Shown here one piece after another: positions 2,114-39,503 of a stretch of 64,000 nt of DNA. How positions within the stretch are numbered: the stretch's first letter is position 1; the number at the start of each line of letters is the position of its first letter. The notes below the pieces were generated by a model that saw nothing but the letters and a program-made list of their open reading frames with translations, ran no database searches and was not told the DNA's origin. This DNA is from Oscillospiraceae bacterium. GTDB lineage: Bacteria; Bacillota; Clostridia; Oscillospirales; UBA929. The DNA lies in NCBI GenBank assembly GCA_031265355.1, contig JAISCT010000031.1, positions 1 through 64,000 on the forward strand, given 5' to 3'. A program made the translations under genes and the position numbers.

Positions 2114-5100
2114 TCAGTTGGCGGTGCTGGAAACTATGTCTTCCAATATTAGGGAATATACATAGTCGCCCATAGCCGCGTACCCCGCCGCGTTCGGATG
2201 AATGCTGTCGTTCCGATAGGCCGCCGACAGCGTGTTTTGGCTGGTCGGGTTTCTCAGCAGTTCGTCAAAATCGGCCAGCCCGTATAGATTGCCCTCCGCG
2301 TACTGTTGCCGGATCCAAGTGTTGACAGTCTGCCGGTTGGCGTCCTGCCCCACGCTTGAGCCGCGGGGAGAGATGGTGCCGCCGTATACTTTGATGCCTT
2401 TTGCCGCCGCCGCCTTAAACAGTTCGTCAAAGGCCGCGATCATGTTGGCCGGGGTCTGGTTGCCACCCGGGAGATCGTTGACGCCGATCAGGAACACCAC
2501 ATAGCCGACCCCCGGTTGGTTGAGTACGTCTCGCTCGAACCGGCTTCTCGCCGCCAGCGGATTTGTCCCGCTGAGCAGCGCGTTGGTCCCGATGCCCATG
2601 TTGACGACGGAGAGATGGCGGGTGTCTGGGTTGGCCTGCAGATCGTTCATCAGGATGTCCACCCAGCGTGTATACAGCTCGTTCGTCACGCCGTACCCGT
2701 CGGTGATCGAGTCGCCAAGCGCCACGATGGATTTGTTTTGCAGCGGCGCCAGAACGTCCGCGCTGCACAGCGTAAACCAGTGGGTGAAGGTGGAACCCGT
2801 CAGGGCCGCGTCCAAAATCGCGTTGGCGTCCCGCTGCAAGTAACTGTTGGCCCTCGCGGCAATGTGCGCGCTCAGCCGCGTCGGCACGTCGCCAAAGTAT
2901 GTGGACACCGCGATTCTCTCCAGCGCGGCCACCGGAAAATCGAGGGGGTCGGACGTCGCGAAGGCCCCGGGCTGAATGGTAACGCCCGCGCTGCCCCCGT
3001 TGAAGGTGACGGCCGTGTTGGTCGAGACGTCGACGTCGGAGGTGTTGTTCGCCCCATTGGCTTTGGCGACGCTCGCCGCCTGAATGGTCAGCGGCGTGGC
3101 CCCGTATTCGTTGGAGAACGTCAGGCGCAGTTGAGGACCGGCTATGGCGGTACGGATGATCTGGCGAAGCGTGGCGCCGGGCAGGGTCAGCGCCGCGTTT
3201 CCGGCGTCGCGCGTGCCTCCGTCGCTGCTGCCGGGGTCGCCGTAATACTGCGCGCTGGCCCATGTGCCGACCCAGTGCGCGCCGGCATCACTTTTTTTTT
3301 CCGTGCAGTACGATTCCGGCGGGCCAAAGTAGGCGGCGTTGCTGGCGCCGGTGCCGTCGCGCTGACCGGTCAGTATGGTCGGCGTCGTGTACGCCGGGTA
3401 GTTAAACCGGACGTTGGTCATTGTATCCAACTGGTTGTTCAAGACGGCCACGGTCGACCTCGCCAGCGTGTTCGTGCCGACGAGGATCTTCTGCAGCGTC
3501 GAGCCGTCATTTACCATGTAGATCCTCAGCGTGTACACACCCGGTTCCGTCACGGTGTGCTGGGAGATGTTGCGGGCGCCATTGTTGCGCAGCGTGATCG
3601 TGCGCGTCGCGCTCTCGGCGCCGTCGGACCACATGATGCTGCCGCCGTTCGTGACCAGGAAGTTGCGCGCCAGCGAATTGACAATCTGCGGCTCCTCGTC
3701 GTCGCCCAGCTGCACGCCGTAGTTGAGCGTCGTGAGCTGTCGCGGATCCATGCCGTTCGTCGGCGCCCATTGCGTGATAATGTCGATATCACCCGGCGTC
3801 TTGATGTAGACGTTGTATTCCAGATACGGTGCGTCCACACCGGGCGTGCGCCCGCCGCCGAATCCGGCGTCCAGCGCGGTCGGCATCACCTTCATCGAGG
3901 ACAGCACGCGGCCGTAATCGGGCAGCTCGGTCCACTGATAGGTCACGCCGTCTTTCTCCGCGGGCACGGAGGAAGCGTAATGCTTGGAGAGAATGGAGAT
4001 GTAGCCGTCGGTCTCGACAAAGGTCTTGTCCGGCAGGCCGGCCGTGTCAAAGACTTCGGCGGTCACCGTGACGGCGACTTCGGCGCCCGCCCCGGCGATG
4101 ACGACACTGCCGCTCGCGCTGCCTCCGGCCGGCACCTTGGTCCAGTCGACGCGGACGTAGATTCTGTCGAGCTTTTCCGCCGTGCCGGCGGTTTTGTCGA
4201 GCACGATCCACGGTTCGCTGGCCGCCGCGGTGTAGTCAAACGGTGTCAGGCTGGTGTTGCCCACGTCGATATAGCGCGTCTCGTCGCCGTAACTTGTGAA
4301 TTTGTGCAGGGCGACGGTACCGGTCTTCGCGTTGGGCAGGGTCGCGCTCAGCCAGGACTGCGGCAGGACGACCATGCTCGGATCCGCCGTCGGGGTGACG
4401 CTGTAGATCCGGCTCCAGGCGGAACCTGTGGTCGTGAAGGCGAACTGGGATGTGCGGTGCGCCCACGACGTCAGCCCAAGGTAGTAGATAGAACTGTCGG
4501 AGACGACGCTGTAGGGAGCCGTTTGATTGCGGCGCGGGTAATAACCGTAATATTTGCCGTCTCCCACGCAGTAATAGGAGTTCTCGTCGGCCGCGATGAT
4601 ATCTTCTCCCAGCACGGCCTTGATCTGCGCGACGTCGCTGGCGTAATTCGGATAGAAGAGACCCGGGGCGCCATAGGTGTTGTACATGGTGAAGTTGTCA
4701 AACAGCAGGCAGGCCCGCGCGATCTCGGCGTAGTCGTTGGCGACGGGCAGCCCCAGGGCCTGGTAAGCCTGGTTTTTCTGAAGGTTGATCATCAGCTTCC
4801 ACGCGTTGCAGGAGATGAGCGTGGGGTGGAGTACCAGATTGTAGTAGGCGTCCATCCTCTCCAGTGGGATCTGCTTCTTGATCTCCAGGGCCTTGTCGGC
4901 GATGGCCTCATACTTCGCCAGCATGGTTTCGGCCTCGCCAAAGTATGTGAGGCTGAACGTGTTGCTGAGCACGATCTCGGGCTTCCTCACGTTGTTCATG
5001 TACGTGTAGTCAAAGATGATCTCCGCAATGTCGTCGGCCAGTTCCTCGCCGAACTCCTTTTCCGCGAACTCCTTGTGAGCCCTGTCCGGTCCGTCCAGCG

Positions 5101-7006
5101 CGCCCCAGGTGTCCACGTCGTAGGCCAGCTTGAACCAGTAATCGATCGGGGCTTCGTTGAACTTGAGATCGCCCACGTTCGTGACCCAGATCCTGTCCAC
5201 ACCGTAGTCATAGGACATCATCATCTGCTCGCGGATCTTCTCCAGCGGGGTGGTGTCTACCCAGCGGTACGAGCGCGGCGCGCCGTTGTAGTCAAAGTGA
5301 TAGTACATGCCGAAGCCGCCGGAGCGGTCGCGGTTCATGTCCATCGGAAGGCCGCGGACGTTGCCGTGGTTGTCGTCGCAGAGGATGACCGTGATGTCGT
5401 CGTCGATCGAGGCTTTCCAGCCCAGATTGGGATCGGACGCGTCGTCGCCGTAGTAGAAAGCTTCGACTTCCTTATAGATGATGACCGACTGCGGGACGTC
5501 GGTGGTCCCGTGGACGTTCTCGATGATCTTGCGCTGCTCCTTGATGACGTCGTTTAGGAGAGCGATGTTCTGCTCCTTTGTCCCCTGCGGGAAGATGGCG
5601 ACGTCGTTGAGGCCGCGCAGACCCATGTTGACGACCGCCTCGTACTCCTTGGTCGCCTCCATGTTTTCCGTCCATACCTCAATCATCTTATCCCTGTTCA
5701 CGTACCGCCAGTTTTCCGGGGCCGGATAACTCGGATTGATCCACTGGAACGGGAGGCTGTTGGTGGACCAGACCCATTCTTTGTCCGGTGTGTTCATGAA
5801 CTCCTGGTGGGTGGTCCCGATGACGATGCCGTAGTCGTTGGCCAGTTGGCCGTTCAGCGGATCGTCCTTCCAGAAGGAGTTGCTCCACATGGCGGGCCAC
5901 AGGTAGTTGCCGTACTGACGGAGGATCATGTCGAACACTTCGACATAGAATTCGTGCGTGAACCGGTAGGCCGGCTTGCCCTGCTCGCGCCAGTAGGGCA
6001 TTGTGAAATTGTGCGCCGCGGCGTACTGTTCCATCCACCTGTCCATGCTGCGCTCGTCGTTGATGAAGATGCCTCTGTACTTGACGGAGGGCTCTTTTGT
6101 AACCTTGGCTTCCTTTTCAAGGAACAGATTGTCCCGGTGGGTGGGGGCGCTGTCCGCAAAGAAGCCCCACGGCGAGACGCCAATGGCTTCGGAGATGTTG
6201 TAGAGACCGTAGACCGCGCCGCGCTTGTCGCTGCCGACGATGACCATGGCGTGTTTCACGCCCGGCACGCCCACAGGGTCGTCGAGGTAAACAGTCGTCC
6301 AGACTTCCCACTTGCCGGCGACGTTTGCGAGGTCGATGTTGTTGTCGTCGATCAGTTGGTCGATGAACGGATTGCCGAGCGCGCCGGCGATGACGGCGGA
6401 TTCGGAGACAAGGCGGTCCTCTTCCCCGATGAGTTCGGACTTGACGCCCGTGACGAGCCTGATGTCGCCGACGACGTTTTCGGCGGCGTGCCGGATGCCC
6501 TCCTCGTCGTCGGCGTCGACAAATACCTTCGCGGCCTTGCCGCTATAAGCGAGATCGAATTGGCCCGTGCCGGAACCGCCCCACAGGACGGCGTCGGTGT
6601 TGTCGGCCAGCGGCACATAGACCATGTCCCAGGCGAAAGCCTTGTATGTGTCGGCGCCGTCGACGGCGTCCGTGGCGACGGAGAGCAGCACGTCGGCGTC
6701 TACGCTGACTTCGGCCGTTTCCGCAGAGAGGAATTTTCCGGCGGCGTCATACGCGGCGATGATGACGAGGCCGCTGACAGCCGCATCGGTCCCATTGTCC
6801 AGCGAGACGGCGACCTTCGGGCCGACCGTCTCGGCGAACAGGACGAGGTCGCCGAGGGGGGAGGATTCGGATGGGGCGCTCTCTTCGACGGCCGCGGCGG
6901 ACACGCCGAAAAGGCCGAACGAGGCAATCACAAGTGTGAGGCATAGCACAAAGGAGAGGAAGCGGGTGGATATTTTCCGGCCTGTACGACCGTGCCTTTT
7001 ACACAT
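2114..7006 (-). CDS. secreted GH115 alpha-glucuronidase fused to an SGNH esterase
   Basis: A 1630-residue exoenzyme. It has a signal peptide (basic start, hydrophobic core, Ala-rich cleavage region near residue 40), then an N-terminal beta-rich domain (about 45-150) also found in the GH28 protein at 22490. The GH115 core begins near residue 155 and contains the family's YRGIFINDE segment. GH115 enzymes remove (4-O-methyl)glucuronic acid from glucuronoxylan. The C-terminal module (about 1246-1625) is an SGNH/GDSL hydrolase with a Gly-Asp-Ser-Ile-Thr block (Ser1433), Gly-Val-Asn-Asp, and Asp1600-x-x-His1603. It is probably a carbohydrate esterase, perhaps a deacetylase. A 9-A run sits at the module boundary near residue 1236. 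No dockerin or surface anchor is visible. The start has GGAG upstream; the gene stands alone behind its own promoter. Confidence 0.88.
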   Translation of the reverse strand: MCKRHGRTGRKISTRFLSFVLCLTLVIASFGLFGVSAAAVEESAPSESSPLGDLVLFAETVGPKVAVSLDNGTDAAVSGLVIIAAYDAAGKFLSAETAEVSVDADVLLSVATDAVDGADTYKAFAWDMVYVPLADNTDAVLWGGSGTGQFDLAYSGKAAKVFVDADDEEGIRHAAENVVGDIRLVTGVKSELIGEEDRLVSESAVIAGALGNPFIDQLIDDNNIDLANVAGKWEVWTTVYLDDPVGVPGVKHAMVIVGSDKRGAVYGLYNISEAIGVSPWGFFADSAPTHRDNLFLEKEAKVTKEPSVKYRGIFINDERSMDRWMEQYAAAHNFTMPYWREQGKPAYRFTHEFYVEVFDMILRQYGNYLWPAMWSNSFWKDDPLNGQLANDYGIVIGTTHQEFMNTPDKEWVWSTNSLPFQWINPSYPAPENWRYVNRDKMIEVWTENMEATKEYEAVVNMGLRGLNDVAIFPQGTKEQNIALLNDVIKEQRKIIENVHGTTDVPQSVIIYKEVEAFYYGDDASDPNLGWKASIDDDITVILCDDNHGNVRGLPMDMNRDRSGGFGMYYHFDYNGAPRSYRWVDTTPLEKIREQMMMSYDYGVDRIWVTNVGDLKFNEAPIDYWFKLAYDVDTWGALDGPDRAHKEFAEKEFGEELADDIAEIIFDYTYMNNVRKPEIVLSNTFSLTYFGEAETMLAKYEAIADKALEIKKQIPLERMDAYYNLVLHPTLISCNAWKLMINLQKNQAYQALGLPVANDYAEIARACLLFDNFTMYNTYGAPGLFYPNYASDVAQIKAVLGEDIIAADENSYYCVGDGKYYGYYPRRNQTAPYSVVSDSSIYYLGLTSWAHRTSQFAFTTTGSAWSRIYSVTPTADPSMVVLPQSWLSATLPNAKTGTVALHKFTSYGDETRYIDVGNTSLTPFDYTAAASEPWIVLDKTAGTAEKLDRIYVRVDWTKVPAGGSASGSVVIAGAGAEVAVTVTAEVFDTAGLPDKTFVETDGYISILSKHYASSVPAEKDGVTYQWTELPDYGRVLSSMKVMPTALDAGFGGGRTPGVDAPYLEYNVYIKTPGDIDIITQWAPTNGMDPRQLTTLNYGVQLGDDEEPQIVNSLARNFLVTNGGSIMWSDGAESATRTITLRNNGARNISQHTVTEPGVYTLRIYMVNDGSTLQKILVGTNTLARSTVAVLNNQLDTMTNVRFNYPAYTTPTILTGQRDGTGASNAAYFGPPESYCTEKKSDAGAHWVGTWASAQYYGDPGSSDGGTRDAGNAALTLPGATLRQIIRTAIAGPQLRLTFSNEYGATPLTIQAASVAKANGANNTSDVDVSTNTAVTFNGGSAGVTIQPGAFATSDPLDFPVAALERIAVSTYFGDVPTRLSAHIAARANSYLQRDANAILDAALTGSTFTHWFTLCSADVLAPLQNKSIVALGDSITDGYGVTNELYTRWVDILMNDLQANPDTRHLSVVNMGIGTNALLSGTNPLAARSRFERDVLNQPGVGYVVFLIGVNDLPGGNQTPANMIAAFDELFKAAAAKGIKVYGGTISPRGSSVGQDANRQTVNTWIRQQYAEGNLYGLADFDELLRNPTSQNTLSAAYRNDSIHPNAAGYAAMGDYVYSLILEDIVSSTAN

Positions 7007-7347
7007 GGGGCAACAACTCCATTCTTAAGGTATAAGCATTGAGCAGACGTTTTTCTTCATAAACCGAATTCTAACTCCGTGAAGGGGATGACCCATGAGC
7101 GCTGAGAAGATAAGTATGCTAGTATACTAGATATGGGACATCCCGCCGATCACATTCCCTATCGCCCCCTTTATATGCACACGAAGTTCTCCTGTATGTT
7201 CTCCCCCGGCGCACCATAAATGCACAGATGCGCCGGAACAATGCCCGCGCGGAACAAACTTTTGGAGTGGCGAAAAACGAATGAAAGTAAAACAGAAATT
7301 CCAAGGGGAAATGTATAAAATATACAAAATTCGACCAATGCACATCC

Positions 7348-7376
7348 ATGATAACACAAGAATACTAGTATGTCAA
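7348..7376 (-). promoter_or_regulatory. sigma-A promoter of the GH115 gene
   Basis: On the minus strand TTGACA (7371-7376) and TATCAT (7348-7353) are separated by exactly 17 bases. This predicts a start near 7341 and an untranslated leader of about 335 bases. The spacer and the first -35 base contain the palindrome ATACTAGTAT (7362-7371), and a related palindrome CTAGTATACTAG lies in the leader at 7119-7130; either could bind a regulator. Confidence 0.75.
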
Positions 7377-7628: not shown

Positions 7629-9107
7629 TTATAGGATGACGCCGTCTTTGAACAGCGCAATCTCCCGGTATCGGCCCGCTTCGTTGCGCGTCTGTGCCCG
7701 GCCCGAAGCCGTGTCGAGCACAAAGGCGTAAAGTTCGCGGGCGATTTCGGAAATATGGCCGCCCGCGACGACCCGCCCGGCATCGAAGTCGATCCACTGC
7801 GGTTTTTCTGTGAACAGCCGGGTATTGGTGGAGATCTTGACGGTGGGCACGGGTGCGCCGAAGGGGGTGCCGCGCCCCGTGGTAAACAGAATCATCTGCG
7901 CGCCGGCGGCCGTCAGCAACGTTGTGGAGACGAGGTCGTTGCCGGGGCCGCCGAGCAGCGTGAGGCCCCGGGTCGTCACCTGCGCTCCGGGTACGACGAC
8001 GTCCGTCACCGGTGCGTGTCCGCCCTTTTGGATGCAGCCCAGCGATTTGTCCTCAAGGGTGGAGAGCCCGCCCTCCTTGTTGCCCGGCGATGGATTTTCG
8101 TAGATCACCTGGCCGTGACGGATGAAATAGGCCTTAAAATCGCGAATCATGGCCACGGTTTTCCGAAACGTCGCCTCGTCGGCACACCGGTTCATCAAGA
8201 TGCTCTCCGCACCGAACATCTCGGGGACCTCGGTCAGCACCGCGCTCCCGCCCTGGGCGATGAGCATATCTGAAAAGGCGCCCACCACGGGATTGGCGGT
8301 GACGCCGGACAGCCCGTCCGAGCCGCCGCATTTTAGGCCGACAGTGAGGGCGGAGACGGGCAGGCGTTCCCGGCGCGCGGTGTAGGCGTTTGCGGAAAGC
8401 GCCTCCAGGAGCGCCCGTCCCGCCCGGTGCTCGTCAGCCACCTCCTGGCAGCACATGAATTTGATCCGGCTCTCGTCGAAGTCTCCCAATTCCGCCTTCA
8501 AACCGTCCAGCGTGTTGTTTTCACACCCGAGAGCCACGAATAAGACCCCCGCCGCGTTGGGATTTTTGGCGAGCGAGGCCAGTGTTTTGCGCGTCAGAGC
8601 GTGGTCGTCTCCCAATTGGCTGCATCCGAAGGGGTGGGGGAAGGCATAGAGCCCCTCCAAACCGTGCCGGACCAGATCTTGATTTTCGTGGGCCAGGCGC
8701 GCCGCCACGCCGTTGACGCAGCCGACGGTGGGCAGGACCCATATCTCGTTTCTGATCCCGGCGCGCCCGTCGCCGCGCCGGTAACCGTCAAAACTGCCGG
8801 GCGGATGCGCGGGCAAGGCGCAGTCCCGCTTTTCATAGGTGTACGCGGTTTTGTCATGCAGATTTGTCTTTAGGTTGTGGACATGCACGTGACGGCCCGC
8901 CTCGATGCTCTCTGCACTGACGTGGCCGATGGGAAATCCGTATTTGATGACATTCTCACCGCGCGCCAAAGTCCGCAGCGCCACTTTATGGCCCTGCGGT
9001 ATTTTTTCTGAGGCGCGCAGCACGCCGGCTCCAATCGGTGCGCCCATCTCGATGTCCGTCACAGCCACGGCGACGTTGTCGGCCGGGTGCAGCACAAGGG
9101 CCTTCAA
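7629..9107 (-). CDS. uxaA: altronate dehydratase
   Basis: A 492-residue cytosolic enzyme that dehydrates D-altronate to 2-keto-3-deoxygluconate in galacturonate breakdown. It has the N-terminal SAF domain (about residues 1-95) and the C-terminal UxaA/GarD catalytic region with GIRNEIWVLPTVGCVN and GCSQLGDDH segments and several conserved Cys. The length is the family's usual. The start is a TTG: uxaB ends in TTTGA, so the TTG overlaps that stop by four bases, and GGGAGG lies six bases before it. This implies translational coupling in a uxaB-uxaA operon. The isomerase UxaC and the sugar-acid kinase needed to complete the pathway are not in the window. Confidence 0.93.
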   Translation of the reverse strand: MKALVLHPADNVAVAVTDIEMGAPIGAGVLRASEKIPQGHKVALRTLARGENVIKYGFPIGHVSAESIEAGRHVHVHNLKTNLHDKTAYTYEKRDCALPAHPPGSFDGYRRGDGRAGIRNEIWVLPTVGCVNGVAARLAHENQDLVRHGLEGLYAFPHPFGCSQLGDDHALTRKTLASLAKNPNAAGVLFVALGCENNTLDGLKAELGDFDESRIKFMCCQEVADEHRAGRALLEALSANAYTARRERLPVSALTVGLKCGGSDGLSGVTANPVVGAFSDMLIAQGGSAVLTEVPEMFGAESILMNRCADEATFRKTVAMIRDFKAYFIRHGQVIYENPSPGNKEGGLSTLEDKSLGCIQKGGHAPVTDVVVPGAQVTTRGLTLLGGPGNDLVSTTLLTAAGAQMILFTTGRGTPFGAPVPTVKISTNTRLFTEKPQWIDFDAGRVVAGGHISEIARELYAFVLDTASGRAQTRNEAGRYREIALFKDGVIL

Positions 9108-10609
9108 AGGGCGCCTCCCGACACGGTTCGGATGGCCTCGTAGAGGCCTTTTTCTTCCATCAGTGTGAAGGCCGCCAATGCGCTTTCCTCAAATCCCGGA
9201 ATCTGGCTCAGGTCTTCATCCCACATCTGGGCGTTGCGGCAGAGAGCCCGGATCAGCGCGCCGGCGCTGTCTTTGGCGTGTTCAAGGAAAAAGGAGAGCA
9301 CAAAGGCGTCGTCAGCGATCGCATATGTCTCATCGCCGCGCCGCCCGACCACGGTGTCGCCGCTTCGTGCGGCGCCGCTGTAAAATTTGGCGTACGCGGC
9401 GAAAGAAAAGAGCAGCAGCGCAGGGATCTTGTGGAACCGGGCCGCATACGCCTTGACGCTGGGGAGCACCCGCGCCTTCCATTTGGCGGTGGAGTTCAGC
9501 GCGATGGCCAGGAGACTGTGGTCGATAAAAGGATTGCGAAAACGTTCGATGACAGAGAGGGCGAAGTCTTTCAGCGCCTGCTCAGGCAGCGTCAGCGTAG
9601 GGATGATCTCCTCGAAGATGAGTGCGTGTATGTAGCGGCAGATCACATCGTCTTCCACGCAGTCGCGCACAAAGTCCTTCCCCGCCAGATAGGCGCCGAG
9701 ACTCATGGACGTGTGGGCGCCGTTTAAGATGCGCACTTTGCGCCTCTTGTAGGGGGTCTGGTCGTCGCAGACGATGACGGGGAGCCCTGCCCGCGCGAAG
9801 GGGAGCTCCTCCGCCAGCCAGGCCGGACCCTCGATCACCCAGAGGCCGAAGGGTTCCGCGGCGTCGAGCAGCTTGTCCGCATATCCGTTTTCTTCGTTTA
9901 GGGCGGCGGCTTCGTCTTTCGGGTACCCGGTGGTGATCCTGTCCACCAGTGTCGAGCAGAACAGGTTGGCGTCGTCCAGCCATGCGATGAACGCCTGTTC
10001 GAGCCCCCACTGCGCGCAGTGCCGCAGTACACACTGTTTCAGTTCTTTGCCGTTGTCGTCGATGAGTTCGCAGGAGAGGATGATGAGGCCCCGGCGCCTG
10101 TCGCCGCCGAAGACGGAAAACCGCTCATATAAAAGACGCGTCAGTTTGCCCGGAAAGTTTTTGGCGGGCGCGTCGTCGAACGAGGCCGTCTCATCAAAGA
10201 CGATGCCGGCTTCGGTGGTATTGCTGACGACGATCCTGAGGTCGGGGTTGTGCGCGCAGTGCAGAAAGTCCTGATACGCAAGATACGGATTGATGCACCG
10301 GCTGATGGAACTGACGATGTGTCTGCTGCCGACGGGACGTCCCGCCTCAAATCCCCTCAGATAGAGAGTGTACAACCCTTCCTGCGCGTTGATTGTGTCG
10401 GCGAGTCCCTGAAGAATGGGCTGAACGACGACGACCTTACCGTTGTACCCGGCTTTCTCATTGGCCACGTCGATGAAATAATCCGCAAAAGCCCGCAGAA
10501 AATTCCCTTCTCCAAATTGCAGTACCCTTTCCGGGGCCGACTCAAGCAGGTAGCCTTCGTACCGGTTCTTTCGCAATGTGTCGTAATGCAGCGGCGGTGC
10601 GTCTTTCAT
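9104..10609 (-). CDS. uxaB: tagaturonate reductase (altronate oxidoreductase)
   Basis: A 501-residue NAD-dependent enzyme of the mannitol dehydrogenase family that reduces D-tagaturonate to D-altronate, the step before UxaA. The N-terminal nucleotide-binding motif (LQFGEGNFLRAF) and the helical C-terminal substrate domain are visible, including a Lys-Val-Arg-Ile-Leu-Asn-Gly-Ala-His-Thr segment typical of the family. The open frame runs 44 codons further upstream, but that part crosses two hairpins and an operator-like palindrome. The ATG at 10609 has a GGGGAGG site at proper spacing and matches the family start. It is probably repressed by the divergently encoded LacI-type protein. Confidence 0.93.
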   Translation of the reverse strand: MKDAPPLHYDTLRKNRYEGYLLESAPERVLQFGEGNFLRAFADYFIDVANEKAGYNGKVVVVQPILQGLADTINAQEGLYTLYLRGFEAGRPVGSRHIVSSISRCINPYLAYQDFLHCAHNPDLRIVVSNTTEAGIVFDETASFDDAPAKNFPGKLTRLLYERFSVFGGDRRRGLIILSCELIDDNGKELKQCVLRHCAQWGLEQAFIAWLDDANLFCSTLVDRITTGYPKDEAAALNEENGYADKLLDAAEPFGLWVIEGPAWLAEELPFARAGLPVIVCDDQTPYKRRKVRILNGAHTSMSLGAYLAGKDFVRDCVEDDVICRYIHALIFEEIIPTLTLPEQALKDFALSVIERFRNPFIDHSLLAIALNSTAKWKARVLPSVKAYAARFHKIPALLLFSFAAYAKFYSGAARSGDTVVGRRGDETYAIADDAFVLSFFLEHAKDSAGALIRALCRNAQMWDEDLSQIPGFEESALAAFTLMEEKGLYEAIRTVSGGAL

Positions 10610-10637
10610 GACATAGAAACCTCCCCATGATAGTACC

Positions 10638-10660
10638 TTGTTGCCGCGAAGCGGCAACAA
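10638..10660 (-). other. hairpin next to the uxaB ribosome site
   Basis: A 10-bp perfect stem (TTGTTGCCGC and complement) with a 3-nt loop, about 12 bases upstream of the uxaB Shine-Dalgarno sequence. No T-run follows on the minus strand, so it is not a standard terminator. It may protect the mRNA or modulate translation. Confidence 0.5.
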
Positions 10661-10676
10661 AAACAAGAATTTGGGT

Positions 10677-10700
10677 TGTGGGTTGCAGGTGCAACCCACA
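10677..10700 (-). other. second leader hairpin upstream of uxaB
   Basis: A 10-bp perfect stem (TGTGGGTTGC and complement) closed by a 4-nt loop, 16 bases upstream of the first leader hairpin. Both fall in the probable 5' leader of uxaBA. Function unknown. Confidence 0.45.
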
Positions 10701-10723
10701 TTAGATATATTTGAAAGGCATAC

Positions 10724-10737
10724 ACAAAACGTTTTGT
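10724..10737. promoter_or_regulatory. LacI-type operator candidate upstream of uxaB
   Basis: ACAAAACGTTTTGT is a perfect 14-bp palindrome with the central CG typical of LacI-family operators. Its AAAACGTTTT core is shared with the larger palindrome at the lacI-type gene's own start site. It lies about 115 bases upstream of the uxaB start, where the uxaBA promoter should be. Confidence 0.65.
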
Positions 10738-10741
10738 TCAT

Positions 10742-26535: not shown

Positions 26536-29500
26536 ATGAAAATGATCTACAAGAACGCGAAGCCCGTATTGGCGTTGGCACTTGCCGTGATTATGATGTT
26601 TGCATCGAGCGGGGGACTTGTATTTGCGGCGGGAAGGACGGTCAATACCGGCGCGGCCCCATCCGCGACAAACGTCGGCACCGCCGTCGTTCTTCCGACA
26701 TCCGGCGCGCCCGGCGGTACCGGAAGTATTTCAATCAACACCGCAGGGACCATAGTCAGCGGCACGACTTCTTACGGGCGTATGCCGCTTTCGAACACCG
26801 TGGGCGATGTATTGCATTTTATCGGCACACAAGTCGTCAGGGCTGACGGCCCTTATAAGGTTTCGACGTATGTAAGGATGACCGCCCAAAGCGGCAACGC
26901 CGGCGCTGGCGTTATGGTTCGTGACAACAGCAATTCGGCCAGTGTAGCCTACGCCGCGTCGTACCTTCGGTACTCAACCGACGCCCCTGGCGGGTATAAT
27001 TACCAGACGCACCGGCGTACTTCGAGCGGAGCCGATTCGGGTTCGGCCACGAACCCGTTTACAATGGGAGCGACCAACCCCGGATTAACCCCTGTGTCGG
27101 TGGATGTCGACACGAACGGCGTATCAACGATGACGACGCCGAACGCGTCCGCCGACAAAAACGACGTCGCGATAACGTATACCCCGAACATCTGGATCGG
27201 GCTGTGGGTCGGCAGGATGACGGTTGAATTCACCAGTTCGCGTATCCTGCAAAAACCCGGGACGGCGCAGGAATCCACACTGTGGCAGACCGAATCCCTC
27301 GCGACGCCGACGAACGGCGGATTCAGCTTCAGCGAAAACGACGTAGTGCTGACATGGAACGCGGTAACAGGCGCGAACCGTTACCGCGTCGAAAGCCCGC
27401 TCGGAACCCTGGTAGGCACTTCGGAGACGGCGACATATACGGTCGGCAACTCGGCCGGTGGCGCGACGTATTACATAATCGCCGAGAACTCGACGGAAGG
27501 CACAATCTTCCCTTCGGATGGCAAATATCTGAACAAGCCGCCGCTGGCGGTAGAGGTTGAGTCGGCGACCGGCCCGTATAACCTCATTTACAGCGCCAAC
27601 GGCGGGGTTGGTCCGGTTCCGGCGACGGTGCAGTATGACGAGGACGAAACCGTCAATGTAGCTTTCACACCCGCGCCGACAAAGGCCGGCAACAACTTCT
27701 TGGGCTGGAGTTTTGACCCCGCCACAACCGGCGCGCCTGCGTATGCGCCGGGAGGCACGGCCACGTTCCCGATGCCCAGGGGATCGAGAACGCTCAACGC
27801 CATGTGGGAGCGCAGGGTCGTCTTTGACGCGAACGGCGGCGACGTAACGCCCCCGGAGCGGTATGTCACGGTCGGTACGCAGATAGGCGCGCTCCCAGCT
27901 TCAGCGGGCACGAAAGGCCTCAGCCAGTTTGGGGGCTGGTCGGCGTCGGCGGCTGGCGATACGCCATATACCGAGACGACGACCGTCACAGCCGGCGACG
28001 CGTTGACGCTGTACGCGATCTGGAACGGGCCTTACGCCGTTTCTTACAACGCCAACGGCGGCGCGGGCGTACCGGCCGCCGCCGATTACGCGATCGGATC
28101 GACCGTTGACGTGGCGTTTGCGCCCGCGCCGGCCAAAGCGGGCAACAACTTCCTCGGCTGGAGCCCCGCCCCGGCCGTTAACGGCGCGCCCGCTTACAGT
28201 TCGGGCGGCACGACGTCCTTCACGATGGGCAACGCGGCCGTAACGCTGAACGCAATGTGGGCGAGACAGGTCAACTTCGATGTAAACGGCGGCACGGGGT
28301 CGGCGCCGAGCAGGTTCGTGGCTGTCGGCACGGTGCTGGGCGCGCTTCCGGCGGACCCCGAGCCCGGCGACCCATCCAAGAAATTCGGCGGCTGGGGCAC
28401 GCTGCCGACCGGCGGCACGAGATATTCAGCCGGCACTGTCGTGGCGTCGGGCGACGCCCTGACGCTGTACGCGCTTTGGGCCGAGCCGCCTACCGCCCAA
28501 AAAGAAGTCCTTGTGCGCAAGGACGGCTCGGGCGATTTCACGACAATCAAAGAAGCGTATAATTTCCTCCGCGACAACGATCTCCCGAACCGGACGATCG
28601 ACGTCGGACCCGGTACGTTCACCGAGAAATTGACTATCAGGTTCCCGGTCACGATCAGCGGCGCGGGAAGGGGTACGGGCGACGACGCGACAATCATTAC
28701 ATGGACAGACGGCAACAGGACCCCGTTCCGCCCGGACGATACCGAGACCGAGCGCGACAAGGAGTATCTGTATCCGAGCATTCGTCCAGGCGGCCCGGCC
28801 GGCCCCGAGCCGAACGGCAGTTATGGCACGATGGGTTCGTATTCGGTCGGGTTCTTCCCCGGCTCCGAGGGTTCCGTTATCAAAAATTGCGCAGTCACCA
28901 ACACCGCCGGTACCAATGTGGGGCAGACCGTGGCGCTGTTCTTCAACGCCGACAGGTGTATCGCCGATAACATCAGGCTGGACGCCCCGAGCAGCGATAC
29001 GTTCCTGGTACACGATTGCAGAGCGTATGTCGTCAACTCGGAAATCCATGGCTCAACCGACTTTATATTCGGCAACGGCCAGGCCGTGATCTATAACAGC
29101 ACGATCAATATCAAAACCACCGGCGGTTGCATGGCGGCTCCGTCTACCGACGTCCGGATCCCTTACGGCATACTGATCGAGAAATGCACGATCACCGGCG
29201 GCGGCAGTAGCGCTTCTTTGGGCCGGGCATGGCAGTGGAACCAAAATGCGAAAGAACCGGCGGAAAGGTACACCGTCGGCGGATCGGCGCTGCTTAAAAA
29301 CAACACCGTAACAGCCACCACAACCGCGAACGGCTTTACGAACGGCACCGGAGGCGGGACCCCGCTTAGCCAGCGCCTGCGTGAATACGGGAGCGTAAAC
29401 GCGGCGGGAACTCTTCTCACATTAAACGCCACGCGGCAGGCGCTTCAGCTTACCCAGGCCCAGGCGGACGATTACAACGTGTTTAACGTACTCGGTGTCA

Positions 29501-32500
29501 ATCAATACAGCACCTCAAGCGATACGCTGTACGCCGAGCCGTGGATACCCCGATATGACACCTTCACGACGCCCGTTACCGAGATCAAAAACGTCAGCAT
29601 CACGTCCGAAAACGGGGTGAAGATCGGCAGCGTGACCACCGCGCCTATCGGCGACACCATCAAGCTCAGGTTTGACGTGACAGAGAAGCTGTTCCCGATG
29701 ACGAAGCCGATCGTCAACTTCAGGATCGGCGGCAGGGAAGCTGCCGAGGCAGTCTCGTTCTACGAGGAGATCGCCCCGAACAGATATGAGGCGACCTTCA
29801 AGGTCAACTTCAGCGACCACACCACCGGTTCGGACACCACATACGGCACGGCCGAGCCGGAGCGCAGCGTAAACCACGGCGGCATCGACGGCGCGGTTGA
29901 GTTCACGATTCAGGGCATCGGCCTTGATGGAAATGACATCACTCCCGTGAGTGCAACGAGCGACGGTACGTCGGTCGTCGTTGACAGGACGCTTCGCGCG
30001 ATACCCGACGCTCCCGTCGTCTCACCGACGGCTGACAAGGCCGACCCATACTGGGACGACGAGATGTACGCGTATGTCGAGGATACCGTAATGGACAACG
30101 TACCTCTGTTCCTCGAGGCCTCGGGTATCCCCGAGTTCAAGATCACCGACGCCAAGTACGCGGACCTTATCCGCACCGCGAACGAGGGCGGCACGGACCG
30201 CCAGGATTACACGAACGTGTTCAAGGCGGCCATCGCCGACGCCAACGCGGTCGGCACCGGCGCGAAGGTCATCGTGCCTGGCGGGGACAATGTTGTTTAC
30301 TACACCGGCGCGATTCACCTCTTGAGCAACGTCAACCTTGTCGTTGAGCAAGGCGCGACGGTGAGGTTCCTGAGGATTATCTCGCAGGAATACTATCCGA
30401 TCGTGCTGCAAAGCTTCGAGGGGCAGGAACTCTACAACTATTCCCCGCCTATCTACGCTCTGAAGCAGAAGAACATCGCGGTTACCGGCGAAGGCACGCT
30501 GGACGCTCAGTACTCGGGCGGCTGGAGCACGAGGACAGGCGACAAAATGGCGCTCAACAAGGATTCCGACCGCGCCGTACCGGTCGTCAAGCGCATCTAT
30601 ACCGATTCAGCCGGACCCACCGCCGGTCAGATGCCCGCTACGATCCCGGTTATCGACGGCGATGAAGTGAAATATGTCGCGCTGCCGGCGGGGGCGGTGA
30701 ACAACAGGATCGGTCTGCGTCCGTGTTTCATCCAGCCATACGCTTGTGAGAACATCATTCTCCGCGATGTGGCCTTAAGAGGCACCCCGATGTGGAACGT
30801 CGCCCCGGTGAGCTGCAGCAACGTGCTGGTTGACGGGCTGGACATCAACGCTGTTGGCATCGGCAACGGCGACGGAGTGAATCCGGTATCCACACAGTTT
30901 GTTATCATCCAGAACGTCTCGTTCGCGACCGGCGACGACTGCATCGCCATCAAGAGCTTTAAGAACGGCGACGGCCTGAGAAGAAACGAGCCGAGCCAGT
31001 ACATCATCGTCAGGGACTGTGCGTTCGCGAACGGTCACGGTGGCGTCACGTGCGGGAGCGAGATATCCGGCGGTATCAGGTGGGTCTTCGCCGAGCGGTG
31101 CGCTTTCAGCAGTCCGAGCCTTGGGTATGCCCTCAGGTTCAAGGTGAACTCCTTCCGCGGAGCCACCATCGAAAACATCTATGAGCGCAACAGCACCATA
31201 TCCAGGTCCTCCGACGCGGTGCTGTATATCGAATCGTCCTACACGTCCGGCAACAACCAGGACAGGGTGGGAGATCTCGGAAAGTACACGCCGCGTCTCA
31301 ATAATATCTATATCAGCGACTTCACGACGCCGGCAGGCGCCAGCATCGGCTGCACAAACTTCGTCAGGATGACCGCGTACACCCGCGCGCCGATCAACGG
31401 CGTGCACATCAAGAATTCTACGTTCAGGGGCGTCGGGGCCAGCACCGTTGAGAGCTTATCCGGCTGGGAGCTTATCAACGTAGGTACGACGACCGCCGCA
31501 AATCCGAGCGGCACCCCGACTATCGTGAACTCGATCCCAATGAAGATAGCGAACGTCAAGCTCAGCGGCGGCGGTGTGTCGGCCGACCTCAAGGACACGT
31601 TGACATACGGCAACAACAGCGTCGCCATTATGAAGAGATCCGGCACAGCCTACATGGTGTCGGGCAAGCTTGAGACCGCCTCAAGCACGACCCCGACGAT
31701 CAGGGTGTTCACCGGAAGGAGCAAGACCAGTTACGCAACCGCGACCGTCACCCCGACAGCCAGCGGGTATAACTTCACCGCCAATGTAACCCTCGCGGCA
31801 ACCGAGAATTTTTATTATATCAACATCACTGCCCAGAACGGCACGTGGGCCGCTTCCAACCTCAACCAGACCACAGCGGTTCATAACGTTGTGATGACGG
31901 ACTACGCTTGGCCAAGAGACGAATTGCCGGTTCAGTTCACCACGGAATCGGTCACGGTCGATGCGAACGCCGAGGCGGTTTATGACAACGCGATCCCGGT
32001 CGATGTCTCTAAGAAGCGTAGCGCGGCCGCGACAGCCGACGCCCCCGACTGCACGACGACCGGCGTCGCCAGGGCGGTTTGGGACGGCGCGAATATGTAT
32101 ATCCTCGTTGAGGTCACGGACGCGAGCGTACGTACGGCAGGCACCGGGGTAAATACAGACGGCGTCGAGTTCTATATCGATTTCGACAACGACAAGCTGA
32201 TGAAAGACCCGGCCGGGCGCAAAATGCACGACAACACAGAAAACGGTGTCAGCAGCGCTTGGGCTGAAGATTACCTTATCCGCGTAGCAAGCAACGGCAC
32301 GGTCAGCGGCACCGGGCCCCGGGGCGGCACGTTTAACCAGCGCCTTGTCAGTTCCGCGGCACGCATTACCCCCACGGGTTATAACGTCGAGCTTGCGCTT
32401 GCGCTCGGTGGACTTCCAAAGGTAAACGGCGCCAATTTCGGTTTCGACATCGGCATCAACGACATGACCTCGACCCAGACCGCCCGCCAGCACAGGGTAT

Positions 32501-34356
32501 TCTGGCACAGAACCGACGGCGCAGACCTGGTCGACGTTTCGACATGGGGCAGCGCAGTGTTGGAGGGCTACAACGGAACCGACCCGCGCAAGCCCGATAA
32601 ATACTGGATAAGCGAGTATATAAAGCGCATAGAAACGACAGGAACTGTCCCTGTGAACATGTACCAGTTCCCGCGCGGCAAGTTCCCGCAGGGACAAATC
32701 GAGCTCGACGCGGCAGTCGCCCAGGCCAAAGCCGTCATCGCCGATTCGTCGGCCACATACCTCGATACCGACGCGGCTGCCGAACGCCTTCGCAACGCGA
32801 TACTGAACCTGCCAAACGAGGGCAAGTTCCCGAATCCGAAGGATCTGCCGACCATAGGCTACATGCCAAACCCATTCGAGTTCTTCGACGGCAGCCCTGT
32901 GGAAGCGCCGTCGGATTGGAAAGCACGCAGTGCCGAGCTTAAGGACCTGATGTCCTACTACGAGTTCGGTGATTGGCCGGCCCCGCCGCAGAGCCTGACG
33001 GCGACCGTCGGCACTGCGGTGGTTGGTGAGTCCAACCGCTTTAACATCCCGATCAATATCACCGACAACGGCAGGAACGCGACGCTCGACGCGACGATAA
33101 CGCTGCCGCAGGGCGCGGGGCCGTTCCCGGTCATCGTTTTTCTCGATTTCAGCGGCACGTACTCCGGTTACAATGCGTACCGCGACGCCAGCGTCAGCCA
33201 AGGTTTCGCGCTGATGCGTATCCAATACGACACGATAGCCAGCGACACGCTGAACACGCGCACCGGCCCGTTCTTCACACTGTATCCGTGGGCTGAAGCG
33301 GACGCCGGTTCCGAGCTGACATGGGCGTGGGGAGCCTCGCGCTGCGCGGACGCCCTGGATTATATCATGGCGAACAACGCGGCTTACGCCGGAAGGTTCG
33401 ACATGGATAAGCTGGTTGTCGCGGGATTCTCGCGCACCGGCAAGGCCGCGCTTCTCGCCGGCCTGTACGACGAGCGGTTCAAGGTTGTAAACCCAATAGC
33501 CTCCGGCAGCGGCGGCGCGGGCGTCTACAGGTACGACGCGTTTAACAACAACTACAGCGGGATCTTTACAAACCCGGCGGCGCTAAACGCTGCCGACTGC
33601 GAAATCCTGCCGGAGCACATCAACAACTTCGGCAACAACGCAAACTCGATGCTGTGGCGTTTCCTGGATTTCGATAAGAATTACAAGCGTGACACGCCGT
33701 TCGGTTACGGCGGGCGTCTGCCGTACGACCATCACGAGATCATCGCCGCGATCGCACCGAGGGCCGTCATCATCAGCAGTATCAACGACGACCACCACAA
33801 CCAGCCCGAAGGCGACGCCACCGGATACGAGGGCGCGAAACCCGTGTTCGAATTCTTGGGCGTGCCGCAGAACATCGCGCTGGACGTGCACCGCGCGGGC
33901 GGCGGCCATTCCGTTAAACAGGCTCAGTGCGAAAACGTCGTGGCGTTCGCCAAGATGGTGTTCTTCGGGACGGAAATGTCGGCGACACTGCGAAATCATC
34001 TCTACTTAAACCCATATGTCGCGACATTCGACCGATACTACGGCGGTCTTGACGCGATGATGCCCTGGCGGCATACGTTCGACGGCGCGTCCTTTGAGGA
34101 CTACATGATCCTCGACAGCAGTATCTCGGGCAACGTGATTGCATCGGCGAAGATATCAGCCAAGAAAGACGCCAATCTTGTACTGGCCGCGTTCGGCGAG
34201 CGCAACGAGTTGATCAATGTCAAGGTACTGCCGGTTGCAGAAGGCACAGGCAGCTATGATCTTGCGTTCGACTTCACCAGCGCCGCGGAGGTCAGGGCGT
34301 TCTTCTGGGATATTGACAGCTACGAACCTTTGTGCGAACCTAAAAAACTGCACTAA
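26536..34356 (+). CDS. trifunctional secreted enzyme: CE8 pectinesterase, GH28, CBM9-like, CE15 glucuronoyl esterase
   Basis: A 2606-residue exoenzyme with a signal peptide (to about residue 32). An N-terminal beta-rich region and FN3-like segment are followed by four InlB/Flg_new-type repeats (347-650). CE8 spans 656-998, with Gln797, Asp821 and Asp842; the two Asp are 21 apart as in known pectinesterases, though the residue before Asp821 is Ser instead of Gln. GH28 spans 1169-1645 (NGDG Asp1446, GDD Asp1467/1468, GHG intact, Arg-Phe-Lys for Arg-Ile-Lys). A CBM9-like domain covers 1800-2011. CE15 covers 2098 to the end, with nucleophile Ser2299 in GFSRTGK (usually GCSRxGK) and His2458 in GGGHS. 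It would demethylate and cut pectin and split lignin-glucuronate esters. The ATG follows a GGAG site. Confidence 0.87.
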   Translation: MKMIYKNAKPVLALALAVIMMFASSGGLVFAAGRTVNTGAAPSATNVGTAVVLPTSGAPGGTGSISINTAGTIVSGTTSYGRMPLSNTVGDVLHFIGTQVVRADGPYKVSTYVRMTAQSGNAGAGVMVRDNSNSASVAYAASYLRYSTDAPGGYNYQTHRRTSSGADSGSATNPFTMGATNPGLTPVSVDVDTNGVSTMTTPNASADKNDVAITYTPNIWIGLWVGRMTVEFTSSRILQKPGTAQESTLWQTESLATPTNGGFSFSENDVVLTWNAVTGANRYRVESPLGTLVGTSETATYTVGNSAGGATYYIIAENSTEGTIFPSDGKYLNKPPLAVEVESATGPYNLIYSANGGVGPVPATVQYDEDETVNVAFTPAPTKAGNNFLGWSFDPATTGAPAYAPGGTATFPMPRGSRTLNAMWERRVVFDANGGDVTPPERYVTVGTQIGALPASAGTKGLSQFGGWSASAAGDTPYTETTTVTAGDALTLYAIWNGPYAVSYNANGGAGVPAAADYAIGSTVDVAFAPAPAKAGNNFLGWSPAPAVNGAPAYSSGGTTSFTMGNAAVTLNAMWARQVNFDVNGGTGSAPSRFVAVGTVLGALPADPEPGDPSKKFGGWGTLPTGGTRYSAGTVVASGDALTLYALWAEPPTAQKEVLVRKDGSGDFTTIKEAYNFLRDNDLPNRTIDVGPGTFTEKLTIRFPVTISGAGRGTGDDATIITWTDGNRTPFRPDDTETERDKEYLYPSIRPGGPAGPEPNGSYGTMGSYSVGFFPGSEGSVIKNCAVTNTAGTNVGQTVALFFNADRCIADNIRLDAPSSDTFLVHDCRAYVVNSEIHGSTDFIFGNGQAVIYNSTINIKTTGGCMAAPSTDVRIPYGILIEKCTITGGGSSASLGRAWQWNQNAKEPAERYTVGGSALLKNNTVTATTTANGFTNGTGGGTPLSQRLREYGSVNAAGTLLTLNATRQALQLTQAQADDYNVFNVLGVNQYSTSSDTLYAEPWIPRYDTFTTPVTEIKNVSITSENGVKIGSVTTAPIGDTIKLRFDVTEKLFPMTKPIVNFRIGGREAAEAVSFYEEIAPNRYEATFKVNFSDHTTGSDTTYGTAEPERSVNHGGIDGAVEFTIQGIGLDGNDITPVSATSDGTSVVVDRTLRAIPDAPVVSPTADKADPYWDDEMYAYVEDTVMDNVPLFLEASGIPEFKITDAKYADLIRTANEGGTDRQDYTNVFKAAIADANAVGTGAKVIVPGGDNVVYYTGAIHLLSNVNLVVEQGATVRFLRIISQEYYPIVLQSFEGQELYNYSPPIYALKQKNIAVTGEGTLDAQYSGGWSTRTGDKMALNKDSDRAVPVVKRIYTDSAGPTAGQMPATIPVIDGDEVKYVALPAGAVNNRIGLRPCFIQPYACENIILRDVALRGTPMWNVAPVSCSNVLVDGLDINAVGIGNGDGVNPVSTQFVIIQNVSFATGDDCIAIKSFKNGDGLRRNEPSQYIIVRDCAFANGHGGVTCGSEISGGIRWVFAERCAFSSPSLGYALRFKVNSFRGATIENIYERNSTISRSSDAVLYIESSYTSGNNQDRVGDLGKYTPRLNNIYISDFTTPAGASIGCTNFVRMTAYTRAPINGVHIKNSTFRGVGASTVESLSGWELINVGTTTAANPSGTPTIVNSIPMKIANVKLSGGGVSADLKDTLTYGNNSVAIMKRSGTAYMVSGKLETASSTTPTIRVFTGRSKTSYATATVTPTASGYNFTANVTLAATENFYYINITAQNGTWAASNLNQTTAVHNVVMTDYAWPRDELPVQFTTESVTVDANAEAVYDNAIPVDVSKKRSAAATADAPDCTTTGVARAVWDGANMYILVEVTDASVRTAGTGVNTDGVEFYIDFDNDKLMKDPAGRKMHDNTENGVSSAWAEDYLIRVASNGTVSGTGPRGGTFNQRLVSSAARITPTGYNVELALALGGLPKVNGANFGFDIGINDMTSTQTARQHRVFWHRTDGADLVDVSTWGSAVLEGYNGTDPRKPDKYWISEYIKRIETTGTVPVNMYQFPRGKFPQGQIELDAAVAQAKAVIADSSATYLDTDAAAERLRNAILNLPNEGKFPNPKDLPTIGYMPNPFEFFDGSPVEAPSDWKARSAELKDLMSYYEFGDWPAPPQSLTATVGTAVVGESNRFNIPINITDNGRNATLDATITLPQGAGPFPVIVFLDFSGTYSGYNAYRDASVSQGFALMRIQYDTIASDTLNTRTGPFFTLYPWAEADAGSELTWAWGASRCADALDYIMANNAAYAGRFDMDKLVVAGFSRTGKAALLAGLYDERFKVVNPIASGSGGAGVYRYDAFNNNYSGIFTNPAALNAADCEILPEHINNFGNNANSMLWRFLDFDKNYKRDTPFGYGGRLPYDHHEIIAAIAPRAVIISSINDDHHNQPEGDATGYEGAKPVFEFLGVPQNIALDVHRAGGGHSVKQAQCENVVAFAKMVFFGTEMSATLRNHLYLNPYVATFDRYYGGLDAMMPWRHTFDGASFEDYMILDSSISGNVIASAKISAKKDANLVLAAFGERNELINVKVLPVAEGTGSYDLAFDFTSAAEVRAFFWDIDSYEPLCEPKKLH

Positions 34357-37233: not shown

Positions 37234-37974
37234 GTGCGTTGCGAGATCCTGGGGATCGAGTTCGACAATGTGACCATAGATGAGGCGCGGGCCCGTGCGC
37301 TCTTCTTTCTGGATGATGAGACGCCCGACGGCGGCGCGCGCCTGATCGTGACGCCAAACGCCGAGATCGTGATGATGTGCCGCCGCGACGCGGCGGCGCG
37401 GGAGGCGGTGCGCGCCGCCGATCTCATATTGCCAGACGGCGTAGGCGTCGGAATTGCATCCCGGATTTTGGAGCGGCCGCTGCGCGCGCGCATGGCTGGC
37501 ATCGATTTTGCCGAGGCGCTGCTGCCGGCGCTGGCCGCGCGGGGGCGCCGGTTATTTTTCCTCGGCGCCGCGCCCGGCGTGGCCGAGGAGGCGGCGCGCC
37601 GCGCCGCCGCGCGGCACGCGGGGCTTGTGATCTGCGGCACGCAGGACGGATATTTCACGCGGGACGAGGACGCGGCGGCCGCAGTCCGAGCGGTCGGGGC
37701 GGATGTCGTCTTCGTCTGTCTCGGCGCACCGAAGCAAGAACTGTGGATGCGCGCGCACGCCGCCGCCACCGGGGCGCGGCTGCTGGTGGGGCTCGGCGGC
37801 ACGCTGGATGTGTGGGCGGGCCGCGTGCGGCGTGCGCCGACGCTGTGGATCCGCTTGGGGCTGGAGTGGCTTTATCGGTTGTTGTGTCAGCCGAGGCGGT
37901 TGTGGCGCATGCTGAAGCTGCCCGTCTTTTTGTGGACTGCGTGGCGCGCCCACAGGAGAGAAAAGAGACAATGA
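37234..37974 (+). CDS. WecG/TagA/CpsF-family glycosyltransferase
   Basis: A 246-residue transferase of the family that adds N-acetylmannosamine to lipid-linked GlcNAc in teichoic-acid or capsule assembly, at the inner face of the membrane. Visible are the Ile-Val-Thr-Pro-Asn-Ala-Glu segment, LPDGVGVGIASRILERPLRARMAGID, the FFLGAAPGVAEEAA glycine-rich region and VFVCLGAPKQELWM near the C-terminus. An in-frame GTG at 37177 also has a good AGGAGG, but it overlaps the -10 box of a promoter; GTG 37234 has GGGGAGAGG just before it and matches the family start. MBOAT and DHHW genes follow on the same strand, so it probably belongs to a surface polysaccharide pathway. Confidence 0.9.
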   Translation: MRCEILGIEFDNVTIDEARARALFFLDDETPDGGARLIVTPNAEIVMMCRRDAAAREAVRAADLILPDGVGVGIASRILERPLRARMAGIDFAEALLPALAARGRRLFFLGAAPGVAEEAARRAAARHAGLVICGTQDGYFTRDEDAAAAVRAVGADVVFVCLGAPKQELWMRAHAAATGARLLVGLGGTLDVWAGRVRRAPTLWIRLGLEWLYRLLCQPRRLWRMLKLPVFLWTAWRAHRREKRQ

Positions 37975-38042
37975 ATCCGCGGTCCGGGCAGGGGCCGCCG
38001 CAGAGGCGCCGCTTTGGGCGGCCGGGGAGGGAACCGAGCGAG

Positions 38043-39446: not shown

Positions 39447-39503
39447 CGCGGCGCCGCGTCACAGAATGAATGGATAAATATGGAAACCACGGAGGAAAAG
39501 AGC

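What the first reader, a model, noticed from the sequence alone, without database searches (positions are those of the whole stretch)
2114..7006. GH115 alpha-glucuronidase fused to an SGNH esterase
Combining a glucuronic-acid-removing enzyme with a GDSL/SGNH esterase in one secreted protein suggests coordinated removal of side-chain glucuronate and acetyl (or another ester) from glucuronoxylan. With the CE15 module 20 kb away, the locus would cover the lignin ester, the glucuronate and an acyl ester.
Basis: partly seen in the sequence, partly recalled or inferred. Interest (0 to 1): 0.58.

Follow-up and report, generated by a model that had tools for sequence, protein, structure and literature searches.

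The report
Xylan glucuronidase fused to sugar esterase
A gut bacterium, probably from a termite, makes one secreted protein that joins two enzymes usually encoded as separate genes, apparently so that it can take an acyl group and a neighbouring glucuronic acid off the plant polymer xylan; the pairing is known biology, but the fusion and the esterase variant look new.

Summary
ORF 2114-7006 (minus, 1630 aa) carries GH115 (Pfam, E 2e-105), GH115_C and a complete two-domain SGNH esterase; other MAGs of the genus carry the same junction, so it is no assembly artefact. All GH115 positions checked are intact and the module groups with the four solved xylan alpha-glucuronidases, not with BtGH115A. 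The SGNH part is closest to the FjoAcXE group of acetyl xylan esterases, which remove the acetyl that blocks GH115. Its Ser-Asp-His triad, oxyanion residues and the Arg that clamps the glucuronate carboxylate are kept, but the GNSI motif, Arg193, GGLGP and loop 1 are not, and it falls in a sister clade; its exact ester is open. New here: a 28-base promoter identical to that of the GH67-uxuAB glucuronate cluster on another contig (three sites in the genome), tying the gene to glucuronoxylan use rather than to its pectin-gene neighbours. The claimed link to CE15 is not supported: CE15 sits in an opposite-strand pectinase-type gene. Fusion was found only in this genus; elsewhere the two are often adjacent genes. 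Verdict: real, a new variant of a known pairing; moderate interest.

The parts
2114..7006 (-). Fused gene: signal peptide - N-terminal domain - GH115 - GH115_C - CBM-like + SGNH esterase (1630 aa)
6893..7006 (-). Probable signal peptide (residues 1-38)
   Evidence: seen by eye in the translation; no predictor run
6572..6886 (-). N-terminal domain (residues 41-145), weakly similar to stretches of other long ORFs of the genome
   Evidence: 11 further matches within query residues 3-143
4976..6097 (-). GH115 catalytic Pfam region (residues 304-677); D317 and D468 match BoAgu115A Asp206 and Asp332
3452..4024 (-). GH115_C domain (residues 995-1185)
2735..3289 (-). CBM-like half of the esterase unit (residues 1240-1424), with Arg1385 = Arg139 of PbeAcXE
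2159..2734 (-). SGNH catalytic half (residues 1425-1616): Ser1433, Gly1473, Asn1510, Asp1600, His1603
7348..7376 (-). Promoter TTGACA-17-TATCAT whose spacer carries the palindrome ATACTAGTAT; shared with the GH67-uxu cluster
7116..7125 (-). Second, one-mismatch copy of the palindrome in the leader
7629..9107 (-). UxaA-like altronate dehydratase, upstream neighbour
   Evidence: Pfam; NCBIfam (TIGR03248 below its cut-off)
9104..10741 (-). UxaB-like tagaturonate reductase
   Evidence: NF002969, 609 bits, above cut-off

Best explanation
A secreted two-step debranching enzyme for glucuronoxylan. The C-terminal SGNH unit, a sister lineage of the FjoAcXE esterases, removes an acyl group (most likely acetyl) from or next to a xylose that bears (4-O-methyl)glucuronate, holding the uronate carboxylate with Arg1385. 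The GH115 part then hydrolyses the alpha-1,2 bond to the unblocked glucuronate. Joining both in one chain with a linker of about 10 residues keeps the two steps on the same substrate. The gene is switched on with the GH67-uxuAB-ABC-KDG kinase cluster by a shared promoter/operator, so released glucuronate is taken up and catabolised. Shown: the architecture, intact catalytic residues, clade placement, the shared promoter sequence and adjacency in other bacteria. Inferred: the acyl identity, the order of steps, substrate channelling and the regulator.
For: GH115: all 13 conserved positions checked are kept, and the module lies in a 28-row clade (SH-aLRT 97) with the xylan enzymes 4ZMH, 6NPS, 7PUG and 4C90 and without BtGH115A. 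Esterase: best solved matches are PbeAcXE (E 6e-65) and CspAcXE (1e-56), and such esterases raise GH115 output about nine- to tenfold (PMC5863359 abstract; PMC9105624). Triad, oxyanion residues and Arg139 equivalent kept. Promoter: the 22-mer occurs 3 times in 3.08 Mb of own genome: this gene, GH67-uxu, and a GH2-type gene (2 mismatches); reversed control 0; one site in G004 before uxuA. In G004 the GH67-uxu cluster, ending in a GntR/FCD gene, ends about 280 bases from the SGNH end of the fusion. Unfused esterase and GH115 genes are neighbours in G557, G527, G807 (two loci), Catenovulum and Sphingomonas. Phylum sample: 4 of 5 genomes with the esterase above 400 bits (own left out) carry GH115, against 14 of 397 overall (not corrected for kinship).
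Against: Substrate-site features of FjoAcXE are largely lost: GNSI is GDSI, Arg193 is Tyr1438, GGLGP is GTNPL, and loop 1 has an 8-residue insertion with no clear Asn26. The module is outside the AcXE clade. In G658 and G495 the esterase is beside GH95; in G015, G016 and G723 it is near housekeeping-type or unannotated genes. The own genome gave one GH10 hit, partial; other xylanase families were not searched. Immediate neighbours of the gene are galacturonate and pectin genes. No activity data.
Confidence: 0.6

Rival explanations
1. The esterase is a general xylan deacetylase with no preference for glucuronate-bearing xylose, merely tethered to GH115.
For: Arg193 is not kept, Asn26 cannot be placed, and loops 1 and 4 are rebuilt.
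Against: The carboxylate clamp Arg139 is kept in 5 of 5 members of its own-family clade, while 9KR0 and five of ten g134 paralogues have lost it; the fused partner is a glucuronidase in all three genomes.
Confidence: 0.2
2. The fused protein acts on another uronate polymer (pectin, rhamnogalacturonan or arabinogalactan protein), in keeping with the adjacent GH28, pectinesterase and uxaAB genes.
For: Neighbours at 7.6-34 kb are UxaA, UxaB, GH28 and pectinesterase proteins.
Against: GH115 is in the xylan clade, not with BtGH115A; its promoter matches that of GH67-uxu, and no further copy with up to 3 mismatches lies elsewhere in the window.
Confidence: 0.1
3. The SGNH unit is catalytically dead and serves as a carbohydrate-binding tail.
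For: Loops around the active site have diverged strongly.
Against: Ser1433, Asp1600, His1603, Gly1473 and Asn1510 are kept in all three fused copies and the closest free ones.
Confidence: 0.04
4. One reading: the fusion works with the CE15 module as one lignin-ester, glucuronate and acyl-ester system.
For: A CE15-type domain (PF22244, E 3e-37) is in the same window.
Against: Opposite strand, 26 kb away, fused to pectinesterase, GH28 and CBM9, no shared promoter site.
Confidence: 0.06

Closest known systems
FjoAcXE / PbeAcXE / CspAcXE acetyl xylan esterases (PMC5863359, PMC9105624; PDB 7TOG, 7TOJ, 7TOK)
   Same: Two-domain CBM-like + SGNH build, triad, oxyanion hole, carboxylate-clamping Arg139, partnership with GH115
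   Different: Separate proteins; GNSI, Arg193, GIGG and GGLGP features absent here; this module is in a sister clade
GH115 xylan alpha-1,2-glucuronidases (SdeAgu115A, AxyAgu115A, BoAgu115A, wtsAgu115A)
   Same: Catalytic domain, catalytic Asp pair, xylan clade
   Different: No esterase module is fused to the solved chains; this GH115 is a long branch (1.02 changes per column)
Same-family GH115 of G013 and G008 (L064, L065)
   Same: Closest GH115 modules, sister in the tree at 96
   Different: Tail of about 550 aa without SGNH and with a C-terminal hydrophobic stretch after a Pro-rich linker
Adjacent unfused SGNH and GH115 genes: G557, G527, G807, Catenovulum adriaticum, Sphingomonas parapaucimobilis
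   Same: Same two families side by side
   Different: Two genes, not one; orientation and order vary
Multicatalytic xylan esterase fusions (acetyl-feruloyl esterases, PMC7110780; CE15-GH8, PMC8417218)
   Same: Principle of fused debranching activities
   Different: Other families; both papers known from search listings only

Membership tests
GH115 alpha-glucuronidase | Glyco_hydro_115 and GH115_C domains above cut-off | tested here: met
   353 and 105 bits against 27 and 24.1
GH115 alpha-glucuronidase | Asp pair (BoAgu115A Asp206, Asp332) and active-site Tyr residues | tested here: met
   D317, D468, Y568, Y573
GH115 alpha-glucuronidase | Xylan (not arabinogalactan) clade | tested here: met
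   quick tree, SH-aLRT 97
GH115 alpha-glucuronidase | Release of (Me)GlcA from xylan | not testable with these tools
   no assay
SGNH hydrolase superfamily | Ser, Gly, Asn, His blocks plus catalytic Asp | tested here: met
   Ser1433, Gly1473, Asn1510, Asp1600, His1603
FjoAcXE-type acetyl xylan esterase | CBM-like + SGNH two-domain unit | tested here: met
   379 query residues aligned with 7TOG 3-378
FjoAcXE-type acetyl xylan esterase | GNSI motif (GNSIXDGRGS) | tested here: not met
   GDSITDGYGV; but G557, G527, G658, G495 and G723, which group with the AcXEs, also have GDSI
FjoAcXE-type acetyl xylan esterase | Arg139 binding the MeGlcA carboxylate | tested here: met
   Arg1385
FjoAcXE-type acetyl xylan esterase | Arg193 contact | tested here: not met
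   Tyr1438
FjoAcXE-type acetyl xylan esterase | Asn26 in loop 1 | tested here: inconclusive
   loop 1 has an insertion; two alignments put Ser or Ala there
FjoAcXE-type acetyl xylan esterase | GIGG and GGLGP in loop 4 | tested here: not met
   GIGT and GTNPL
FjoAcXE-type acetyl xylan esterase | Same clade as characterised members | tested here: not met
   sister clade of 15 rows (95) beside the 7-row AcXE clade (98), quick tree
FjoAcXE-type acetyl xylan esterase | Deacetylation of MeGlcA-(1->2)-3-O-acetyl-Xyl | not testable with these tools
   no assay
CE20 carbohydrate esterase | CE20 membership (ancillary domain inserted in the SGNH fold) | not tested
   only the search listing and one passage of PMC12313940 were seen

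The most novel reading that the evidence does not exclude
The SGNH unit founds a distinct esterase lineage that anchors on the uronate carboxylate (Arg1385) but has a rebuilt pocket, and so takes an ester that FjoAcXE cannot (for example an acyl group on or near a further-decorated glucuronate). It is obligately coupled to GH115 so that one protein removes a blocked side chain in a fixed order, as part of a three-promoter regulon (GH115-SGNH, GH67-uxu, a GH2-type enzyme) of gut Oscillospiraceae.
Probability: 0.22. Interest if true: 0.6.

Novelty: new variant of a known kind. Interest (0 to 1): 0.45.

Why it matters
Acetyl on the glucuronate-bearing xylose blocks GH115, and the FjoAcXE group removes that block. 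A natural fusion of the two would be a ready-made reagent and would test whether physical coupling sets the order of xylan debranching. The mix of kept clamp and lost contacts makes the esterase a sharp test of what sets specificity in an unclassified esterase group. The shared 28-base promoter gives a genomic handle on the glucuronoxylan regulon of an uncultured lineage.

Tried and rejected
AlphaFold2 model of the SGNH module from three close sequences gave mean pLDDT 43.7; not used, no fold search made. First GH115 tree read 17 minus-strand loci on the wrong strand; discarded and rebuilt. Relatives in viral contigs: 24 pattern hits, none a relative. Fusions on plasmids: 89 records matched, 0 with one place covering 80% of the query. 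PDB 9KR0: no paper on it found. Rejected: assembly chimera (other MAGs share the junction), dead esterase (triad kept), CE15 partnership (see rivals). No paper naming a GH115-SGNH fusion appeared in the listings; this covers open-licence PMC papers only, mostly as titles and abstracts, and CAZy and InterPro architecture tables could not be queried. Surveys outside the phylum could not be made with the genome search.

Full report
1. What is there. The minus-strand ORF 2114-7006 codes for 1630 aa. Pfam finds GH115 (304-677), GH115_C (995-1185) and Lipase_GDSL_2 (1429-1611). A signal peptide is visible at the N-terminus. No dockerin, SLH or other anchor matched at E up to 0.01. The N-terminal domain (41-145) has weak matches in other long ORFs of the genome. 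The GH115 part ends at the 'GPPES' motif that also lies near the end of the GH115_C region in G013, G008, G557 and G658. The esterase starts about 10 residues later.

2. Not an artefact. The junction recurs in two other MAGs of the genus. G002 (contig JAIRML010000251.1, Cd354_bin102) has a 1121-aa partial ORF with GH115, GH115_C and SGNH. G004 (JAIRTA010000126.1, Ct408_bin61) has the GPPES tail and SGNH cut by the contig end. The record titles say Oscillospiraceae; that these bins come from termite guts is my recollection of the naming scheme, not a tool result.

3. How widespread. PF15979 was found in 22 of 394 genomes of the order sample and 15 of 398 of the phylum sample, the window's genome in both. 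The esterase alignment was run over the same two samples at E up to 1e-20: 25 of 394 and 7 of 398. Only G000 (1636 aa) and G002 (1121 aa) had it in an open frame long enough to hold GH115; the next longest was 615 aa. In some genomes only 4 of the first-look candidates were scored. A class sample around G557 gave 3 of 72 genomes with the esterase at E up to 1e-40, none fused. On plasmids none of 89 matching records covered 80% of the query in one place. So the fusion was seen only in this genus, among the phylum's genomes sampled and the plasmids. Other phyla could not be sampled.

4. Neighbours instead of fusions. Same-strand adjacent genes occur in G557, G527 and G807 contig 40; in G807 contig 193 the order is GH115 then, after 730 bases, the esterase. 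These three genomes are of one family. On plasmids, Catenovulum adriaticum has GH115, DUF1593 and GDSL genes in a row, and Sphingomonas parapaucimobilis has GH115 and SGNH divergent, 115 bases apart. Against this: in G658 and G495 the esterase is beside GH95, in G015 near CofD, in G016 near sensor and regulator genes, and in G723 near a SipL-domain gene. In the phylum sample 4 of 5 genomes (own excluded) with the esterase above 400 bits carry GH115, against 14 of 397 overall; Fisher p = 5e-6, uncorrected for kinship, as the four are two pairs from two genera.

5. The GH115 part. All 13 positions checked are kept; D317 and D468 correspond to Asp206 and Asp332 of BoAgu115A, whose roles are discussed in PMC9063842 (passages). 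In a quick maximum-likelihood tree of 51 rows it lies with all four solved xylan enzymes (SH-aLRT 97), apart from BtGH115A. Its sister rows are the same-family G013 and G008 enzymes, which lack the esterase.

6. The esterase part. Best solved matches are PbeAcXE and CspAcXE. These remove acetyl from xylose that carries MeGlcA and boost GH115 about tenfold (PMC9105624, parts 1-2 of the text; PMC5863359, abstract and passages). Mapped on PbeAcXE, the window keeps Ser188, Gly228, Asn265, Asp363, His366 and Arg139, and lacks GNSI, Arg193 (Tyr1438), GIGG and GGLGP; loop 1 is longer, so Asn26 cannot be placed. A 40-row quick tree puts it with G004, G002, G015 and G016 (100), sister to a set of ten g134 sequences (95), beside the AcXE clade (98). 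I therefore do not file it as a FjoAcXE-type enzyme; it works most probably like one.

7. Regulation and pathway. A promoter with 11 of 12 consensus matches ends at 7348, about 340 bases before the ATG. Its 28 bases TATTGACATACTAGTATTCTTGTGTTAT are identical before the GH67 gene on contig 3 of the same genome. The 22-base core with up to 3 mismatches has 3 sites in the 3.08 Mb genome (this gene, GH67, and with 2 mismatches a GH2-type 1784-aa frame), 1 in G004 and none in 16 other genomes of the family; the reversed control gives 0. The GH67 gene is followed by uxuA and a fructuronate reductase-like gene, then, after two plus-strand frames, by ABC transporter and KDG kinase-like genes, orthologous (84-92% identity) to the G004 cluster. 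In G004 that cluster is followed by a GntR/FCD gene, which ends about 280 bases from the SGNH end of the fusion and faces it. [quoted passage not shown] This is the strongest evidence for a glucuronoxylan substrate. That the GntR/FCD protein binds the palindrome is inference.

8. The window neighbourhood. Upstream on the same strand are UxaA- and UxaB-like genes, then on the plus strand GH28 genes and a 2606-aa protein with pectinesterase, GH28, CBM9 and CE15-type modules. This is a pectin and galacturonate setting.

9. Gaps. One weak, partial GH10 and several GH43 modules were found in the genome; GH11, GH30, GH5 and GH8 were not searched. Trees were quick searches with SH-aLRT only. No activity can be tested here.

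10. Verdict. Real fusion, catalytic sites intact, known pairing of activities in a new architecture, with a diverged esterase whose exact ester is open. Interest 0.45.

Noticed in passing
26536-34356 +: 2606-aa protein combining pectinesterase, GH28, CBM9 and a CE15-type glucuronoyl esterase domain: a glucuronoyl esterase inside a pectinase-type protein is unusual.
   Followed up: no
window 7355-7376; G000 contig 3 27793-27814 and 33265-33286; L134 508-529: Three-site promoter/operator family shared by GH115-SGNH, GH67-uxu and a GH2-type gene; a small glucuronoxylan regulon.
   Followed up: partly
L132 (G000 contig 17, 73000-86000): Very long frame (3345 aa) with GH97, Big_2 repeats and two SGNH modules: another glycosidase-SGNH fusion in the same genome.
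   Followed up: partly
L148, L149, L151: Tandem pairs and triplets of SGNH esterases of the sister clade in g134 genomes that also carry GH115; five of ten sequences in the tree lack the Arg139 equivalent.
   Followed up: partly
37377-40937 +: MBOAT acyltransferase next to a DHHW/AlgX-like protein: probable polysaccharide O-acetylation pair.
   Followed up: no
1-675 +: Open-ended hydrophobic protein at the contig start, not annotated.
   Followed up: no
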